The translations under genes and the position numbers were made by a program. The notes below the pieces were generated by a model, which saw nothing but the letters and a program-made list of their open reading frames with translations, made no database searches and had not been told where the DNA came from. From the NCBI RefSeq assembly GCF_006715175.1, contig NZ_VFMQ01000001.1, positions 1,612,001-1,676,000 of the forward strand: a stretch of DNA of 64,000 nt. Direction: 5' to 3'. Origin of the DNA: Curtobacterium citreum. Its GTDB lineage: Bacteria; Actinomycetota; Actinomycetes; Actinomycetales; Microbacteriaceae. This document shows positions 10,522-63,496 of the stretch, in pieces (the first letter of the stretch is position 1; each line of letters opens with the position of its first letter).

Positions 10522-10695
10522 TGCGTCCGGGGCCAGCCGTACGCGAGCAAGCTGGTCCGAGCAGACTCGTACGTGCCCCCCACGACCTCCCGCATCGATC
10601 CGCGCAGAACCGGTACCGATCGGGAATCAACCGGCCCGCTCTCGGCTTGGCCTCGAGCGGACCCCTCTCCACCACAGCGAAAGGACTCACCTCCG

Positions 10696-12069
10696 GTGAC
10701 CGACAAGCGCACCCTCATCATCTTCGGCGCGACGGGCGACCTCGCCTCCCGCCTGCTGCTGCCGGGCCTCGGCACGTTCCTGCAGAGCGGTCGAGCGGTT
10801 CCCGTCCAGCTCATCGGTACCGGTCGCAGCGCCCGCAGCGAGGACCAGTGGAAGGACGTCGTCACGAAGTCCTTCGCATCGCAGGACGTCAAGGGCGAGG
10901 AGGTCGACGCCACCCTCGCGTCGACGCAGTTCATCCAGGGCGACCCGACCGACCCGAAGCACCTCGAGGCGCTCCTGGCCGCGGCCGACGCCGAGCCCAT
11001 CCTGTACTTCGCGCTGCCGCCGCAGATCGCGTCGGACATCTGCGAGGCGCTGCAGGAGGTCGAGCTCCCCGCGGGCACGACCCTGGCGTTCGAGAAGCCG
11101 TTCGGCACCGACGTCGCCAGCGCGAAGGCTCTGAACGAGACGGTGCTCAAGCTCGTCCCCGAGGAGCGCGTGCACCGCACCGACCACTTCCTCGGTCGCA
11201 CCACGGTCCTGAACATCATCGGTCTGCGCTTCGCGAACCGCCTGTTCGAGCCGATCTGGAACGCGGACAACATCGAGAAGGTCGACATCTTCTACGACGA
11301 GACCCTCGGTCTCGAGAACCGCGCGCAGTACTACGACGAGGCCGGCGCGATGGTCGACATGATCCAGTCGCACCTGCTCCAGATCCTCGGCATCGTGACG
11401 ATGGACGCCCCGGCGGACATCGACGCGGTCGAGTTCCGCTCGTCCCTGGCTCGTGTCCTCCGGTCGACCGAGCTCAAGGGTGGCGACGCGACGATCGCCT
11501 CCCGCCGCGCCGTCTACACGGCCGGCACCATCGACGGCAAGGAACTGCCGTCGTACCAGGACGAGGACGGCGTCGACAAGTCGCGCGGCACCGAGACCCT
11601 GGCTGAGATCGAGGTCGAGGTCGACACGGCGCGCTGGAAGGGCGTCCCGTTCACCCTCCGCTCCGGCAAGGCGCTCGGCGCCAGCCGCAAGGAGGTCCTC
11701 ATCACCTTCAAGCCCGTGACGCGCCTGCCCTCCGGCCTGTCCGGTCGCCCGAAGGCGGACACGCTGCGCATCGTCCTCAACCCGGACGAGATCGAGCTGT
11801 CGGTGTCGGCGAACGGCGGCGGCAACCCGTTCGAGATGGGGCAGGTCACGCTCTCGTCGACGTTCGACGACGGTGAGCTGACCCCCTACGGCGAGGTCCT
11901 CAACGGCATCTTCCACGACGACCCGCTGCTCTCCATCCGCGGCGACGTCGCGGAGCGCTGCTGGGAGATCGTGGAGCCGGTCGTCGAGGCCTGGAAGTCC
12001 GGTTCGGTCCCGCTCGAGGAGTACCGCGCGGGCTCGCGCGGCCCGGCGGAGTGGGTCTCGTCGTCCTGA
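10696..12069 (+). CDS. zwf: Glucose-6-phosphate dehydrogenase
   Basis: Oxidises glucose 6-phosphate to 6-phosphogluconolactone with NADP+, the entry to the oxidative pentose phosphate pathway. It has 457 residues, on the short side. The nucleotide-binding GATGDLASR lies at 11-19, EKPFGTD near 133, and the catalytic RTDHFLG near 161-167. The GTG start is supported by GAAAGG 10 nt upstream. The familiar actinobacterial tkt-tal-zwf-opcA cluster is absent: zwf stands alone between the cta operon and a convergent glycosidase, so it may be a second copy. The palindrome at 12101-12150 terminates it. Confidence 0.92.
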   Translation: MTDKRTLIIFGATGDLASRLLLPGLGTFLQSGRAVPVQLIGTGRSARSEDQWKDVVTKSFASQDVKGEEVDATLASTQFIQGDPTDPKHLEALLAAADAEPILYFALPPQIASDICEALQEVELPAGTTLAFEKPFGTDVASAKALNETVLKLVPEERVHRTDHFLGRTTVLNIIGLRFANRLFEPIWNADNIEKVDIFYDETLGLENRAQYYDEAGAMVDMIQSHLLQILGIVTMDAPADIDAVEFRSSLARVLRSTELKGGDATIASRRAVYTAGTIDGKELPSYQDEDGVDKSRGTETLAEIEVEVDTARWKGVPFTLRSGKALGASRKEVLITFKPVTRLPSGLSGRPKADTLRIVLNPDEIELSVSANGGGNPFEMGQVTLSSTFDDGELTPYGEVLNGIFHDDPLLSIRGDVAERCWEIVEPVVEAWKSGSVPLEEYRAGSRGPAEWVSSS

Positions 12070-12100: not shown

Positions 12101-12150
12101 TGACGGACGGGAGGCGCGGTGCCAGCTGGCACCGCGCCTCCCGTCCGTCA
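12101..12150. terminator. GGAGGC-family palindrome after zwf (part of composite element 1)
   Basis: A perfect 25-bp-arm palindrome centred on AGCT; the left arm begins TGACGGACGGGAGGCGCG. It lies in the convergent zwf/GH15 gap and can terminate both. The composite repeat 12182-12336 follows it. Confidence 0.75.
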
Positions 12151-12181
12151 TGTGGTCGCGCCCACGGCACGACCGCGACGT

Positions 12182-12336
12182 TCCTGCCCATCGCGACCGA
12201 CATGGGAGACCGATCCGCGCATCGGAGGCCGGAAGGAACGGCATCCCACGCGCGGATCGGCATCCTGTGCGCGGATCGGCACACCATGCGCGGATCGGCA
12301 CCCCTTGCGCGGAACGGCATCACACGCGCGGATCCG
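12182..12336. repeat. Composite intergenic element 1: CCCAT/ATGGG dyad plus five 19-bp repeats
   Basis: CCCATCGCGACCGACATGGG lies at 12187-12206. Five head-to-tail units of 19 bp follow at 12242-12336, with consensus CATCCCACGCGCGGATCGG (core GCGCGGATCGG). Units differ mainly in their first eight bases. The same arrangement occurs at 53685-53816. The 19-bp period rotates the reading frame, and no start or ribosome site fits a gene, so this is read as non-coding DNA of unknown function. Confidence 0.8.
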
Positions 12337-12341
12337 CTGGG

Positions 12342-14228
12342 TCAGGAGGGGGAGCCGGCCCGGCGGCCGCCGCCCGTCCACGAGCGCGTGCCGCCGTCGT
12401 GCACGGCGAGCCGCGTGCGGTGCCCGGACGCCTCGCCGCGGGCCCGCGCGATCGCGTCCGCCGCGGACACGAGCGTCAGGTGGGACAGCACCTGCGGCGT
12501 GTTGCCGATGTGGTGGCCGGTGGCGACGTCGATCTCCTCGGAGAGCATGCCGACGTCGTTGGCGTACCCGACGAGCACGTCCATCAGGCGCTCGGCGTCC
12601 TCGACCCGACCGGAGGCCGCGTACTGCTCGACGAGCCAGAACGAGCACGCCAGGAACGGGTGCTCGCTGCCGGAGAGCCCGTCGAAGCCGGCGCTCGTCC
12701 GGTAGCGCAGGACGAGTCCGTGGTCGCCGACGCGCAGGTCCTGCTCGATCGCGGCGACCGTGCCCGTCATCCGGGGGTCGTCGGCGCGGCAGAACCCGAT
12801 CTGGGGCAGGACGAGCAGGCTCGCGTCGACCTCGTCGGTGTCGTAGTGCTGGCGGAAGGCGCCGCGGTCGGCGTTCCAGCCGTGCTCCTCGATCTCGGCG
12901 CGGACCTGGTCGCGGAGCGTCCGCCAGCGGTCGACGGGACCCTCGAGCCCGAACTCCTCGACGGCCGCGACGCCCCGGTCGAACGCGGCCCAGATCATCG
13001 CCCGCGAGTGCGTGAAGTGCCGTCGCGGACCGCGCATCTCCCAGATCCCGTTGTCGGGCTCCTGCCAGTGCTCCTCGACGTAGCCGAGCAGGGCACGCTG
13101 CAGCGCCCAGGAGTCCGCGTTCTCCTCGACGCCGAGCTCGCGGGCGTCGTGGAGCGCGGCGAGGACCTCGCCGAAGACGTCGCCCTGGTACTGGGTCGAG
13201 GCGCCGTTGCCGAGCCGGACCGGGGTCGAGTCGAGGTACCCGGGGAGCTCCTCGAGGGTGCGCTCCGGCAGCTCGCGCTCCCCGGCGATGCCGTACATGA
13301 TCTGGACGTCGGCGGGGTCCCCGGCGATCGCGCGGAGCAGCCAGCCGCGCCAGTGCGCGGCCTCGTCGCGGTACCCGTGGGCGATCAGGGACGCCAGGGC
13401 GAGCGACGCGTCGCGCAACCACACGTAGCGGTAGTCCCAGTTGCGTTCTCCGCCGGGGTCCTCCGGGAGGCTCGTGGTCGCGGCCGCCACGACGCCGCCG
13501 GTCTCGCCGTGGGTCATCGCGCGCAGGAGCAGCAGGGAGCGTCGGCTCGCCTCGGCGTACTTCCCCTCGGTGTGCGCGGTCCCCATCCAGTCCCGCCACC
13601 AGCGTTCGGTCCGGTGCAGGGCCGCGTCGACGTCGAGCGGCGCCGGCGGTTCGCGGTGGGACGGGTACCAGGTCAGGACGGTGTCGAGGACCTCGCCGTC
13701 GCGCACGGTGGTCGTGTTCGTGTGCCGGTGGTCGTCCGCGCGGAAACGGACGCCGCGGACGACGACCGACCCCGGGCCGGCGGTCGCCAGGAGGGCGGGG
13801 TCCTCGTCGCCGCCGATCTGCCGGACCCAGGGCAGCGCACGCGCGTAGTCGAAGCGGATGCGGAGGGTCTGCTCGACCTCGACCGATCCCTGCAGACCGC
13901 GGACACGGCGGACGATCGCGGCCCGGTGCGCCCCGACGGGCATGAACTCGGTGACCTCGACGACACCGGTCGCCGTGGTCCACACGGTCGAGAGCACGAG
14001 CGTGTCACGGTGGTGGTGCCGGACCGAGGTCGCGTGCGGGTCGCTCGGTCGCAGCGTCCAGTGTCCGTGGTCCTCGGTGCCCAGGAGGGACGCGAACGTG
14101 GACGGACTGTCGAAGCGGGGCAGGCACGCCCAGTCGATCGTCCCGTCGCGGCCGACGAGGGCTGCGGTGTACGTGTCGCCGATCAGGGCGTGGTCCTCGA
14201 TGCGGTTGCGCGGCGTCGCGGTGCTCAT
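12342..14228 (-). CDS. Glycoside hydrolase family 15 protein (trehalase/glucoamylase-like)
   Basis: A protein of 628 residues. The N-terminal trehalase-like domain (residues 1-200; RIEDHALIGDTYTAALVGRD near the start) is followed by the (alpha/alpha)6 barrel of GH15. The substrate-binding NWDYRYVWLRDASLAL stretch lies near 263-278, and the late EEIDVATGHHIGNTPQVLSH block near 560 carries the second catalytic Glu region. Actinobacterial GH15 proteins of this form include trehalases; maltose- or glucan-acting enzymes look alike, so the substrate is open. There is no signal peptide, so it acts in the cytoplasm. It follows the App1-like gene with an 82-nt gap on the same strand. Confidence 0.88.
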   Translation of the reverse strand: MSTATPRNRIEDHALIGDTYTAALVGRDGTIDWACLPRFDSPSTFASLLGTEDHGHWTLRPSDPHATSVRHHHRDTLVLSTVWTTATGVVEVTEFMPVGAHRAAIVRRVRGLQGSVEVEQTLRIRFDYARALPWVRQIGGDEDPALLATAGPGSVVVRGVRFRADDHRHTNTTTVRDGEVLDTVLTWYPSHREPPAPLDVDAALHRTERWWRDWMGTAHTEGKYAEASRRSLLLLRAMTHGETGGVVAAATTSLPEDPGGERNWDYRYVWLRDASLALASLIAHGYRDEAAHWRGWLLRAIAGDPADVQIMYGIAGERELPERTLEELPGYLDSTPVRLGNGASTQYQGDVFGEVLAALHDARELGVEENADSWALQRALLGYVEEHWQEPDNGIWEMRGPRRHFTHSRAMIWAAFDRGVAAVEEFGLEGPVDRWRTLRDQVRAEIEEHGWNADRGAFRQHYDTDEVDASLLVLPQIGFCRADDPRMTGTVAAIEQDLRVGDHGLVLRYRTSAGFDGLSGSEHPFLACSFWLVEQYAASGRVEDAERLMDVLVGYANDVGMLSEEIDVATGHHIGNTPQVLSHLTLVSAADAIARARGEASGHRTRLAVHDGGTRSWTGGGRRAGSPS

Positions 14229-14310
14229 GCGCACATCGAACCACCGCCACCAGTCCGCGGCGGGAGGGGCGCTGAAGGAGCGCTCAGGCGCCGGGCGCAG
14301 GGCACCGGGC

Positions 14311-15384
14311 TCAGGCGCCGGGTAGGGGAGCCTGGGGGTCCGCGTCGGCGACGCCCACCCGGGCGAGCTCGGTCCAGAGGCCGGCACCGTCCGGCGCGTA
14401 GACCCACGGCGCCGCCGAGTCGCGTGAGCGCTCCTGCGCACGGGAGCGGCCACCGGCGAGCACGGCCTCGCTCGTGGAGAGCTGCCGGATCGCCACGCCG
14501 GCGACGTTGTCCGGGTGCTCGCGGGCGAAGTCGCCGTACAGCGTCTCGTCGTGCTGCCCGTCGTCACCGACCAGCAGCCACTGCACGTCGGGGAAGTCCC
14601 GCGCCAGACGGCGGAGGTTGTCGCGCTTGTGCTGCTGACCACTGCGGAAGAAGCGGTCGTGGGTGGGACCCCAGTCGGTGAGCAGCATCGTGCCGTTCGG
14701 GTACATGTTGCGGGTCAGGAAACGCTGCAGGGTCGGCGCGACGTTCCACGCCCCGGTCGACAGGTAGACCGTGGGGGCACCGGGGTGCTGCGCGAGGATG
14801 CGCTCGTAGAGCACGGACATCCCCGGCACCGGGCGGCGGGCGTGCTCGGTGAGCACGAAGGAGTTCCACGCGGCGAGCATCGGGCGGGGGAGCGAGGTCA
14901 CCATCACCGTGTCGTCGATGTCGGAGAGGAGCCCGAAGCGCGTCGCCGGGTCGACGATGAACACGTCCGCCTCGACGTCGCGCATCCCACCGGCCGAAAG
15001 CCGCACGGTCTGCCACCCCGGTTCGAGGTCGATCGGGACCTTCACGTCGACGACGCCGCCGCGGTCGGACTGCACCACGTGGGTCGTGCCACCCGCGGTC
15101 ACCGTGACCTCGGCGTCGTCGACGGCGACGCTCGTGAAGCTCTTCCACCCGCGCACGCCGTAGTACGAGGCGTCCGAGGCGAGCCCGCGCCGGGTGAGCA
15201 GGACGCGGCAGAGGACGCGGATCCAGCCCGGAGCGCCGTACCCGGTGTACGGGATCACGGTCGGCACGAGCCCACGACGACGGGCACGGTGCTCCCGGAA
15301 CTCCTGCACGGCATCCTCGATGCGGGCGGCTCGGTGCAGGATCGGCTCGGCCAACGACGGCTCGTGGGGCGTCCAGTCGGGCAT
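14311..15384 (-). CDS. App1/DUF2183 family phosphatase-domain protein
   Basis: A protein of 357 residues with the DUF2183 (App1) domain, a HAD-like fold found in yeast phosphatidate phosphatase App1 and in many actinobacteria. The N-terminal half is a beta-rich region. The phosphatase signature LLSDIDDTVMVT (DxDxT) lies near 152-163, and GDDGQHDETLYGDF near 280 supplies the acidic motif. The bacterial substrate has not been settled; a lipid phosphate is the family expectation. The ATG follows a GATAGT box by 6 nt on the minus strand, suggesting a leaderless transcript that continues into the GH15 gene. Confidence 0.82.
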   Translation of the reverse strand: MPDWTPHEPSLAEPILHRAARIEDAVQEFREHRARRRGLVPTVIPYTGYGAPGWIRVLCRVLLTRRGLASDASYYGVRGWKSFTSVAVDDAEVTVTAGGTTHVVQSDRGGVVDVKVPIDLEPGWQTVRLSAGGMRDVEADVFIVDPATRFGLLSDIDDTVMVTSLPRPMLAAWNSFVLTEHARRPVPGMSVLYERILAQHPGAPTVYLSTGAWNVAPTLQRFLTRNMYPNGTMLLTDWGPTHDRFFRSGQQHKRDNLRRLARDFPDVQWLLVGDDGQHDETLYGDFAREHPDNVAGVAIRQLSTSEAVLAGGRSRAQERSRDSAAPWVYAPDGAGLWTELARVGVADADPQAPLPGA

Positions 15385-36828: not shown

Positions 36829-37476
36829 ATGAGTTCCCGCGGCAGCTACCGGACCGCCCTGACGTACGGCGCCGTGGGCGCGACCCAGGCGGCGGACCTC
36901 ATGACCTACCCGCCCGAGGGCTTCGTCCCGGCGGAGTCGCGGGCCCGGATCGGGCACGGCGACCAGCGCTTCGAGACCGCCGTCACGCAGACGCTGTCCT
37001 GGCAGATCCAGGAGCGCAGCGGCATCCGGGTGCGCGTCGAGGACCAGCCCGACGACGACGAGGTGCGCTACAACCCGGTGACCTTCGACGAACGGGGCGT
37101 GCCGATCGCGCCGGCGTCGATCGGGACCCCGCGCGTCGAGAAGTTCGCGGCCGACGGCACACCGCTCCTGACGGCCGGCACGACGGCCACGCTCGAGATG
37201 CACGCGTTCGGGCGGACCGTGCACGCGCCGGTCCGGGTCGTGTCGATCATCGACGAGACCGACCGCAAGGGCTTCGCCTACGGCACGCTCGAGGGACACC
37301 CGCTGTCGGGCGAGGAGTCGTTCGTGGTCGAGCGCACCGCCGACGGGTCGGTCTGGCTGCAGGTCCGGCAGTTCTCGCAGCCGGCGAGCCCGAAGTGGCG
37401 CTTCCTGTCGCCGCTGCTCAAGCGGCAGCAGAAGGTCATGGCGGCGAAGTACCTCGAGGCGCTGCGCGGCGACTGA
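36829..37476 (+). CDS. DUF1990 domain protein
   Basis: A protein of 215 residues with the DUF1990 pattern: LTYGAVGATQ near the start, a central RVEDQPDDDEVRYNPVTF region, and a C-terminal block (GYGTLEGHPLSGEESF-like, near 145-165). Family members occur in actinobacteria and plants and have no established biochemical role. There are no membrane segments and no signal peptide. A TAGGCT box ends 6 nt before the ATG. The last codons and stop are tandemly repeated in the short convergent gap that follows. Confidence 0.8.
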   Translation: MSSRGSYRTALTYGAVGATQAADLMTYPPEGFVPAESRARIGHGDQRFETAVTQTLSWQIQERSGIRVRVEDQPDDDEVRYNPVTFDERGVPIAPASIGTPRVEKFAADGTPLLTAGTTATLEMHAFGRTVHAPVRVVSIIDETDRKGFAYGTLEGHPLSGEESFVVERTADGSVWLQVRQFSQPASPKWRFLSPLLKRQQKVMAAKYLEALRGD

Positions 37477-37517
37477 CCCTGCGCTGCGCGACGACTGACG
37501 CCGCGCTCCGCGACGGG
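37459..37517. repeat. Tandem repeat spanning the DUF1990 stop codon
   Basis: GCGCTGCGCGGCGACTGAC (37459-37477) recurs as GCGCTGCGCGACGACTGAC at 37481-37499 (one difference), with a third degenerate copy at 37503-37517. The unit contains the gene's own TGA. Confidence 0.7.
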
Positions 37518-51727: not shown

Positions 51728-53567
<1,840 letters not shown>

Positions 53568-53590: not shown

Positions 53591-53635
53591 GACGGGAGGC
53601 GCGGTGCGGGTCCGACCCGCACCGCGCCTCCCGTC
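53591..53635 (+). terminator. GGAGGC-family palindromic terminator after leuA (part of composite element 2)
   Basis: A perfect 21-bp stem with loop CCG; the left arm begins GACGGGAGGCGCGGTGCG. It starts 23 nt after the leuA stop. Confidence 0.75.
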
Positions 53636-53684
53636 CGTGGTGCCGTCCCGACCCGTCGCGCTCGCCGTCGCGTGGTGCGTTCCG

Positions 53685-53816
53685 TCCCATCGCAACCGAC
53701 ATGGGACGACGGATCGCTCACAGGAGGACGGAACTCGCGGTCTCCGACGCGCGGATCGGTCTCCGACGCGCGGATCGGTCTCCGACGCGCGGATCGGTCT
53801 CCCACGCACGGAACGG
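53685..53816. repeat. Composite intergenic element 2: CCCAT/ATGGG dyad plus four 19-bp repeats
   Basis: CCCATCGCAACCGACATGGG at 53686-53705 matches element 1 at 19 of 20 positions. Four 19-bp units follow at 53741-53816: three identical (TCTCCGACGCGCGGATCGG) and one variant (TCTCCCACGCACGGAACGG). It lies between the leuA palindrome and the recO start. No coding potential is convincing. Confidence 0.85.
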
Positions 53817-53864: not shown

Positions 53865-54713
53865 ATGCCGCTGTACCGGGACGAGTGCGTCGTGTTGCGC
53901 ACCCACAAGCTCGGTGAAGCCGACCGCATCGTCACGATGCTCTCCCGGCAGCACGGCAAGATCCGGGCCGTCGCGAAGGGCGTCCGGCGTACCGCGTCGA
54001 AGTTCGGGTCTCGGCTCGAGCCGTTCATGGTCGTCGACGCGCAGTTCTACGAGGGCCGCACGCTCGACATCGTCACGCAGGCCGAGAGCCTCGGGTCGTA
54101 CGGTGCCCAGATCGTCGCCGACTACGGCGCGTACACGGCCGCGAGTGCGATGGTCGAGACCGCCGACCGCCTGAGCGAGGCGGACGCCGGGCTGCAGCAG
54201 TACCTGCTGCTCGTCGGGGCGCTGCGCTCGCTGTCCCGTCGCGAGCACGTCACGAGCGCGACGCTCGACTCCTACCTGCTTCGGGCGATGAGCATCGCGG
54301 GTTGGGCGCCCTCGTTCGGCGACTGCGCGGTGACCGGGGAGCCCGGGCCGCACACCGCCTTCGTCGTGCAACTCGGCGGCGTCGTGGCCGACCGGGCGGC
54401 GCCGCCCGGCACCCCGCGCCTGGACATCGACACGCTCGGCCTGCTCGGAGCCCTGCTCGCGGGCGACTGGGCGACCGTGGACGTCGCGGACGAACGGACG
54501 CGCTCCCGGGCCTCCGGCGTGGTGGCGGCGTACGCCCAGTGGCACCTGGAACGATCGCTCCGGTCCCTGCCGCACGTCGACCGCAGCGAGCACCCGGCAC
54601 CGGTCGCACCGACGCCGGGTGGGGTCCCCGCCGCGGTCTCCGCGACACCGGCACCCACGGTCCCCGTGCCGACCGACACCGTGCCGTCCGATCCCGAAGG
54701 AGCCCCTGCATGA
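53865..54713 (+). CDS. recO: DNA repair protein RecO
   Basis: RecO loads RecA onto SSB-coated gaps with RecR. The 282 residues have an N-terminal OB-fold ([20 protein letters not shown]) and a helical C-terminal domain. The cysteine cluster that binds zinc in many RecO proteins is reduced to one Cys (in [11 protein letters not shown] near 147-157). A Pro/Thr/Val-rich tail of about 45 residues follows. A GATACT box ends 6 nt before the ATG. The stop overlaps the uppS ATG. Confidence 0.93.
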
Positions 54714-63215: not shown

Positions 63216-63283
63216 GCCGGGTGCCGGTGCCGGTCCCGGACCCGCGAGACGCCCTCGTGCGCGCGGGACGCCGCCGGTTCCGG

Positions 63284-63460
63284 GACCGTCTCGGTGGGAG
63301 GTGACGGTCTCGGCGCGACCGGACCGTCTCGGCGGGACCGGGCGCGGACGCGGACGTGGACGCCTCCGGCCCGGACCTCTCCGCGACCGCAGTCGACGTG
63401 CCGGACGTGCCCCGCTCCTCCAGGCCGTCACCCGTCCACAGGCGGACGCTCGTCCACAGG
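63284..63460 (+). repeat. Short direct repeats in the dgt-dnaG gap
   Basis: Two repeat types: ACCGTCTCGG/GACGGTCTCGG copies between about 63284 and 63340, and CGTCCACAGGCGG at 63433-63445 with a second copy at 63451-63463 differing at the end. No gene or hairpin terminator is convincing in the 293-nt gap. Confidence 0.5.
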
Positions 63461-63496
63461 CGGGCGCGACCGTCCGCCGGGGTCACCGGCACGAAC

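What the first reader, a model, noticed from the sequence alone, without database searches (positions are those of the whole stretch)
12101..12336. Composite intergenic element 1 (palindrome + 20-nt dyad + five 19-bp repeats), homologous to 53591-53816
Seen: a GGAGGC palindrome, then CCCATCGCGACCGACATGGG, then five 19-bp units with core GCGCGGATCGG. The order and sequence are repeated 41 kb away with a different unit count. The homology covers the ~100 nt from the dyad into the first repeat units. Inference: this is a mobile or copy-number-variable non-coding element in this lineage, possibly a protein-binding array (iteron-like) or a transcribed structured RNA behind gene terminators. I cannot name it.
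Basis: partly seen in the sequence, partly recalled or inferred. Interest (0 to 1): 0.7.

Follow-up and report, generated by a model that had tools for sequence, protein, structure and literature searches.

The report
Curtobacterium dispersed 19-bp site-array element
Curtobacterium bacteria carry up to dozens of copies of a small intergenic DNA element, a short hairpin plus one inverted and several direct 19-bp units, and in some species the copies examined share their own sequence dialect, as if one unknown protein reads them.

Summary
The element proper is an 82-nt core (CGTTCC, dyad, inverted unit, loop, first direct unit) plus 0-8 further 19-bp units. This genome has 45 places, 42 of exactly 82 nt; 27 of 39 genus genomes, own included, match. 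The genus is Curtobacterium. The arms covary, but G.U pairs are about as frequent as A.C mismatches: DNA-level constraint, not single-strand RNA. Units outside the hairpin keep the core ACG[C/A][G/C]CG-N3-C. Some genomes show one dialect in every copy examined (33 of 33 in G329), others mix. Sites are shared across species yet often lost. No Y1 transposase in 39 genomes; none seen among 80 flanking proteins. Best reading: a new BOX/REP-class interspersed repeat whose units are binding sites of an unidentified protein. The protein and the means of spread are inferred.

The parts
12109..12142 (.). GGAGGC palindrome: zwf terminator-like hairpin, separate family, NOT part of the element
   Evidence: 115 places in the genome; present after zwf in 29 of 30 species, most of them without the element
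12179..12260 (+). element 1, 82-nt core
   Evidence: R1 match 94.3 bits, E 1.1e-13, at G000:C1:1624179-1624260 (this copy is in the model's own alignment)
12187..12206 (+). 20-nt dyad (hairpin 1) of element 1
12210..12230 (-). inverted unit (5' arm of hairpin 2)
   Evidence: exact inverted core; columns 32-52 of the helix counted
12231..12239 (+). apical loop GAAGGAACG region (alignment columns 53-61)
12242..12336 (+). five direct 19-bp units (unit 1 is inside the core)
   Evidence: tandem repeat finder period 19, 5.3 copies
53678..53759 (+). element 2, 82-nt core (between leuA and recO)
   Evidence: R1 match 73 bits, E 7.2e-10, at G000:C1:1665678-1665759 (this copy is in the model's own alignment)
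53686..53705 (+). 20-nt dyad of element 2
53709..53729 (-). inverted unit of element 2 (diverged)
   Evidence: alignment columns 32-52
53741..53816 (+). four direct 19-bp units of element 2
   Evidence: tandem repeat finder period 19, 4.2 copies
10528..12069 (+). zwf, glucose-6-phosphate dehydrogenase, upstream neighbour of element 1 (start uncertain)
   Evidence: Pfam G6PD_N, G6PD_C
12342..14642 (-). GH15 glycoside hydrolase, convergent neighbour of element 1; array ends 5 nt before its stop codon (start uncertain)
   Evidence: Pfam Glyco_hydro_15, TREH_N
51798..53567 (+). leuA, upstream neighbour of element 2
   Evidence: Pfam HMGL-like, LeuA_dimer
53865..54713 (+). recO, downstream neighbour of element 2
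   Evidence: Pfam RecO_N, RecO_C

Best explanation
A small interspersed DNA repeat of Curtobacterium, roughly 100-230 bp with its units, that works as an array of binding sites. Each 19-bp unit is one site (core ACG[C/A][G/C]CG-N3-C); the first two face each other around a short loop and can pair into a hairpin or cruciform, the others follow head to tail. Shown here: the anatomy, the copy number, the restriction of dyad-bearing copies to the genus in the samples searched, arm covariation without G.U bias, core conservation in unpaired units, a uniform dialect in the copies examined of some genomes, site sharing with frequent loss. Inferred: that one sequence-specific DNA-binding protein, most likely a recombinase or transposase acting in trans, reads the units, and that copying or conversion among copies keeps a genome's copies alike. 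Unit number probably changes by slippage (inferred from variable counts).
For: 45 places in this genome, 42 of exactly 82 nt; 27 of 39 genus genomes, own included. Two-sided changes in 199 pair cells against 77.7 shuffled; slid controls at most 75. Own arm pairs better with own unit 1 than with unit 1 of other copies of its genome (0.830 against at most 0.822 in 1000 shuffles) and than with unit 2 (89 against 28 of 145). G.U 174 and A.C 158 cells, shuffled 189 and 167: DNA-level. In G000 units 2 and 3, outside the hairpin, hold 1.2-2.0 bits at core positions 9-13 while positions 2-4 and 6 hold 0.5-1.0: a recognition motif rather than fresh duplication. Dialects with matched change in arm and unit: 33 of 33 copies examined GCTC/GAGC in G329, 16 of 16 GCGC/GCGC in G321, 7 of 8 GGGC/GCCC in G257; the G329 copies at the zwf and leuA sites carry GAGC units while G000 and G214 have GCGC units there.
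Against: No candidate protein: Y1_Tnp in 0 of 39 genomes, no transposase or recombinase family among 80 flanking proteins, of which 9 had no family at all. No target-site duplication seen. Two of the covariation measures do not exceed shuffles (pairs with a two-sided change 18 against 16.2, 66 of 500; pair types 47 against 42.6, 32 of 500), much of the rest comes from the A/B switch, and the inner pairs of the dyad are mostly unpaired. Some genomes mix dialects (G031, G331; A and B types both in G326), so one strict reader is not required. G000 itself is poorly homogenised (arm identity 0.67 within, 0.52-0.68 to others), and there unit 2 pairs with the arm nearly as well as unit 1 (0.774 against 0.781). 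Copies studied were mostly top model hits.
Confidence: 0.45

Rival explanations
1. Chromosome-structuring or regulatory sites: the arrays bind a resident nucleoid-associated or regulatory protein and are kept for that job, not as mobile DNA.
For: Core conserved in units outside the hairpin; sites empty in G326 are occupied in 7 of 13 regions of the more distant G331 and G323.
Against: 0 of 5 such regions occupied in G328 and 0 of 2 in G315; 8 of 16 sites differ between sister species; 12 of 39 genus genomes have no R1 match at E 1e-4 (R1 is built on type A, and at least G308 among them has a type B copy); scanned neighbours are of unrelated functions.
Confidence: 0.2
2. Passive product of replication: quasi-palindromes are perfected by template switching and units multiply by slippage; no reader and no function.
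For: DNA-level covariation without strand bias; weak copy-level arm pairing; variable unit number. The template-switch mechanism is recalled, not from a call.
Against: Does not explain 42 places with the same 82-nt core, its sharing by many species, the conserved core in units 2-5, or one dialect at unlinked loci.
Confidence: 0.15
3. Bidirectional transcription terminator or 3'-UTR RNA structure for the genes that it abuts.
For: 18 of 43 lie between convergent genes against 6 of 53 gene pairs in the window (Fisher p 0.0008; against 3 of 19 gaps of 100 nt or more p 0.08); long hairpin; the element 1 array ends 5 nt from a stop codon. If both strands were transcribed, G.U would not be favoured either.
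Against: zwf keeps its own palindrome with or without the element; no T run after the hairpins in the two window copies by eye; fold z only -0.22 in element 2; RNA from one strand is disfavoured by the G.U test; the array side faces a gene start in 11 of 43.
Confidence: 0.13
4. A REP/BIME family moved by a RAYT (Y1 tyrosine) transposase.
For: Imperfect palindromes, dozens of copies, intergenic, lineage-specific variants, as REPs are described in PMC2817692 (abstract and passages).
Against: No Y1_Tnp match in 39 genomes, while the same search rings in 5 of 14 controls. No GT(A/G)G head in the consensus.
Confidence: 0.04

Closest known systems
BOX elements of Streptococcus pneumoniae (PMC3049150; abstract and two Results sections seen)
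   Same: Modular small interspersed repeat with a variable number of repeated modules, stem-loop forming, over-represented between convergent genes, about half of the insertions shared by all strains compared, nearly confined to one lineage
   Different: Here the repeated module is 19 bp (recalled: boxB about 45 bp), it is also the hairpin arm, and arm and units show dialects; BOX has terminal inverted repeats and target duplications, here neither was established
REP/BIME with RAYT (PMC2817692; abstract and passages seen)
   Same: Intergenic imperfect palindromes in tens of copies, species-specific variants
   Different: No GT(A/G)G head, no Y1 transposase in the genus sample, regular 19-bp direct arrays
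Iteron arrays of plasmid and phage origins (recalled)
   Same: Direct repeats of about 17-22 bp, an inverted repeat beside them, conserved core with variable flank
   Different: 45 chromosomal places, no initiator gene seen beside them, no match of element 1 in plasmid or phage collections
MITEs with subterminal transposase-binding repeats (recalled)
   Same: Small, non-coding, hairpin-forming, binding-site arrays plausible
   Different: No parent transposon found, no clear terminal inverted repeat or target duplication

Membership tests
REP/BIME-RAYT | Imperfect palindrome able to form a stem-loop | tested here: met
   Helix 32-52/62-82 with 87% of cells paired
REP/BIME-RAYT | GT(A/G)G head 5' of the palindrome (PMC2817692, passage) | tested here: not met
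   Consensus 5' part is CGTTCCTTCCCATC
REP/BIME-RAYT | Y1 tyrosine transposase (PF01797) in the genome | tested here: not met
   0 of 39 genomes, own included
BOX | Modular repeat with a variable number of repeated modules | tested here: met
   82-nt core (42 of 45 places), 1-9 units
BOX | boxA/boxB/boxC sequence | not tested
   No BOX sequence was fetched; compared by anatomy only
BOX / MITE | Terminal inverted repeats and target-site duplication | tested here: inconclusive
   In 16 sister-species site pairs some left junctions fall at CG/TTCC and some right ends at GGAACG, but no duplication is clear
Iteron array | Tandem 17-22 bp direct repeats with a conserved core | tested here: met
   19-bp period, conserved core in units 1-5
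Iteron array | Cognate initiator gene alongside | tested here: not met
   None recognised among 80 flanking proteins scanned with Pfam, 9 of them without any family
Known structured RNA (Rfam 15) | Match at gathering score | tested here: not met
   0 matches in the window

The most novel reading that the evidence does not exclude
Curtobacterium chromosomes hold an undescribed two-part system: dozens of dispersed 19-bp site arrays and one trans-acting protein that reads them, with protein and sites changing together to give lineages their own dialect; further sequence-unrelated arrays with the same 19-bp step (GAGACG arrays here, GTGTGAGGACG palindromes in another genus) would be sister systems of the same kind.
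Probability: 0.25. Interest if true: 0.75.

Novelty: new variant of a known kind. Interest (0 to 1): 0.52.

Why it matters
It is a well-defined family of chromosomal site arrays in one genus, without a match in Rfam, and the listings of seven library searches did not point to a description (of the listed papers only two were opened, and subscription papers are not held). Because congeners share sites but differ in dialect and presence, it offers a natural experiment on how dispersed non-coding elements change together, and a ready bait for finding the protein behind them.

Tried and rejected
RNA from one strand: disfavoured by the G.U/A.C balance, no Rfam match and weak fold scores. RAYT-mobilised REP: rejected. 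GGAGGC palindrome as a part: rejected. Phage or plasmid origin: exact pattern scan of viral contigs 0; distant blastn of element 1 against plasmids and phages no match. Array polarity towards gene 3' ends: 14 of 23 tandem cases, p 0.40, not significant. Avoidance of divergent gaps: 2 of 43 against 6 of 53, p 0.29, not significant. Regulon: scanned neighbours are unrelated. First view that each genome has one strict dialect: withdrawn, G031, G331 and G326 are mixed. Simple recent insertion as the cause of all eight G214/G326 differences: five of the eight sites are occupied in G331 or G323, though none in G328, so loss in G326 is likelier at those five if sites are not hot spots; gain remains possible at the other three.

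Matches outside the genus: G029 (another genus) with R1 at E 6.6e-6, 9 matches, and G029, G399 and G423 with R2 at 2.5e-4 to 9.5e-4. The copies read lack the dyad and were not counted as members; the G029 palindromes may be distant kin.

Limits: A2 was cut to 82 nt per copy and A4 and the 154 cores were chosen at exactly 82 nt, so their lack of gaps is partly by choice; the unbiased figure is 42 of 45 R1 matches of 82 nt (others 81, 83, 101). Match counts per genome include reverse-strand shadows of the hairpin, and only the best-scoring candidates per genome were scored. The context count uses 43 of 45 places (two tandem neighbours left out; two others share one gap). Gene calls are from my own codon-usage script. 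States at the zwf and leuA sites on the tree were read by eye; R2 finds the element in 7 of 29 zwf loci, own locus not included, and 12 of 30 leuA loci. Model R2 was built with helix 1 shifted by one column on its 3' side, my typing error; helix 2 is unaffected. The tree is a quick one on two genes with seven rows under half filled. G214 sites: 20 queried, two had one flank missing, 18 regions fetched, 16 aligned; the two with large inserts, L312 without and L320 with R2 matches, were left out. The flank scan used E limits of 1e-8 and 1e-10, covers 80 pieces of which at least two are the same gene, and 6 to 8 of the 86 flanks were not scanned.

Full report
1. Observation. The two stretches are as described and align at 80% mean column identity. 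The dyad pattern occurs twice in the window against 0.07 in shuffles. Two features were missed: an exact inverted core at 12210-12220 and a conserved CGTTCC before the dyad. There is no Rfam match in the window.

2. Family in the own genome. The dyad pattern with up to 3 mismatches gives 23 places, 22 real on reading. A covariance model from these 22 (A2, R1) gives 47 matches at E up to 7.2e-5, two of them reverse-strand shadows, so 45 places; 42 of the 45 are exactly 82 nt long. Order of parts: CGTTCC-N2, dyad, 3-nt spacer, inverted unit, 9-nt loop, unit 1, further units at exact 19-bp steps; 1-9 units in all by my count.

3. The palindrome is separate. GGGAGGC...GCCTCCC has 115 places in the genome against 3 for the reversed control; 16 of 43 elements have one within 160 nt upstream. 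Behind zwf it is present in 29 of 30 species, although R2 finds the element in only 7 of 29 of those loci, own locus not counted. Behind leuA it is present in 22 of 30 by my pattern. It is best read as a terminator hairpin (inference).

4. Distribution. R1 matches 27 of 39 genus genomes, own included, with 1-68 matches each. In a family-wide sample R2 matches 8 of the 10 genus members listed, and 3 of the remaining 388 genomes marginally; an earlier R1 search of 299 genomes matched five genus members and G029 at E 6.6e-6. The copies outside the genus that I read lack the dyad. A pattern scan of named genomes gave 42 stretches: 40 Curtobacterium, one 'Microbacteriaceae bacterium', one Chthoniobacter MAG taken as chance. 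The genus is therefore Curtobacterium. No viral match to the exact pattern, and no plasmid or phage match to element 1.

5. Structure and level. In 64 copies from many genomes the 21-pair helix has 17 pairs with two-sided changes; over both helices two-sided cells are 199 against 77.7 shuffled and at most 75 when slid, but the number of pairs with such a change (18 against 16.2) and of pair types (47 against 42.6) do not clearly exceed shuffles. Much comes from the switch between types A (GCGCG) and B (GGGCG/CGCCC); other pairs vary on their own (37-77, 45-69, 48-66). The inner pairs of the dyad are mostly unpaired. Within a genome the arm fits its own unit 1 slightly better than those of other copies (0.830 against 0.808 shuffled, 0 of 1000 reach it). 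G.U 174 and A.C 158 cells are both near their shuffled values, 189 and 167. A transcript of one strand should favour one over the other; DNA, or transcripts of both strands, would not.

6. Units are sites. In G000 units 2 and 3, which lie outside the hairpin, hold the core as well as unit 1 does (mean information 1.31 and 1.33 against 1.25 bits), while positions 3, 4 and 6 drift; similarly in G329 (1.40, 1.36 against 1.42) and G331 (1.53, 1.43 against 1.43), less so in G321 (1.29 against 1.70). This is what a recognition motif looks like, and the main ground for the site-array reading.

7. Dialects. Arm/unit cores of the copies examined: G329 33 of 33 GCTC/GAGC; G257 GGGC/GCCC 7 and GGGC/TCCC 1; G321 16 of 16 GCGC/GCGC; G000 35 of 43 GCGC on both sides, the rest single-sided variants; G031 and G331 mixed. 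The G329 copies at the zwf and leuA sites carry GAGC units, while the same sites in G000 and G214 have GCGC units. A copy in G031 has A units near the hairpin and B units at the far end (L076).

8. Turnover. Presence and type are scattered over a quick two-gene tree. Between sister species G214 and G326, 16 sites with an element in G214 could be aligned: 8 carry one in G326 (one of them of type B instead of A) and 8 do not. In 20 outgroup regions for those eight sites, elements are found in 3 of 7 in G331, 4 of 6 in G323, 0 of 5 in G328 and 0 of 2 in G315; five of the eight sites are occupied in G331 or G323. So many sites look old and copies are lost repeatedly, or sites are hot; fresh insertion was not proved and no target duplication was seen. 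Length differences of unit arrays are visible at shared sites (L297, L301).

9. Context. By my gene of 43 lie between convergent genes, 23 in tandem, 2 between divergent genes; in the window 6 of 53 gene pairs are convergent (Fisher p 0.0008; against gaps of 100 nt or more p 0.08; divergent p 0.29). Neighbours are ordinary: phosphofructokinase, glutamine synthetase, DNA polymerase A, ribosomal L13, DAHP synthase and so on. Of 80 proteins scanned (4 of the window, 76 pieces beside other copies) none matched a transposase or recombinase family and 9 matched nothing. PF01797 was not found in 39 genomes.

10. Reading. Closest in behaviour are the BOX elements of pneumococcus: modular, stem-loop forming, enriched between convergent genes, about half of the insertions in all strains compared (PMC3049150, abstract and two sections). 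REPs fail two defining features. I file the element as a new family of small interspersed repeats whose units are binding sites; the protein and the way of copying are inferred. Seven library searches listed no paper that pointed to it; apart from PMC3049150 and PMC2817692 the listed papers were not opened.

Noticed in passing
window 63283-63341, L004 1617-1660, L013 1559-1600: A second, sequence-unrelated array family (GAGACG/CGTCTC) in the same genome also steps by 19 bp: 6 of 16 spacings up to 60 nt are 19, and the window array shows 38; in loci of other genomes the commonest GAGACG spacing is 57 and 19 is not among the listed ones.
   Followed up: partly
L058, L063, L068, L073, L077 (G029, another genus of the family): Long palindromes built of the 19-mer GTGTGAGGACGTTCTGCGC or close variants; its complement, rotated, resembles the Curtobacterium unit (by eye).
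   Followed up: partly
leuA-recO gap in L120, L125, L138, L140, L145-L147, L128: Other species carry quite different hairpin arrays in this same gap, e.g. GAACACCGGTGTTC, GAGGTCGC, GCAAAACGCAACG.
   Followed up: no
genome-wide, e.g. window 12109-12142: GGAGGC palindrome family of 115 near-identical terminator-like hairpins, up to 3 mismatches.
   Followed up: partly
L310 (G326): Three elements in tandem, at least two of type B, each of these two after a GGAGGC hairpin, at a site where G214 has type A.
   Followed up: partly
L159 (G214), L167 (G323): The array runs up to the GH15 gene: a CTA inside the last unit appears to supply its stop codon (by eye).
   Followed up: no
L055, L059, L079, L081: These draft contigs end within a few hundred bases of an element, so draft assemblies may under-count them.
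   Followed up: no
window 37459-37515 and 63433-63467: Further short tandem repeats of 22 and 18 bp.
   Followed up: no
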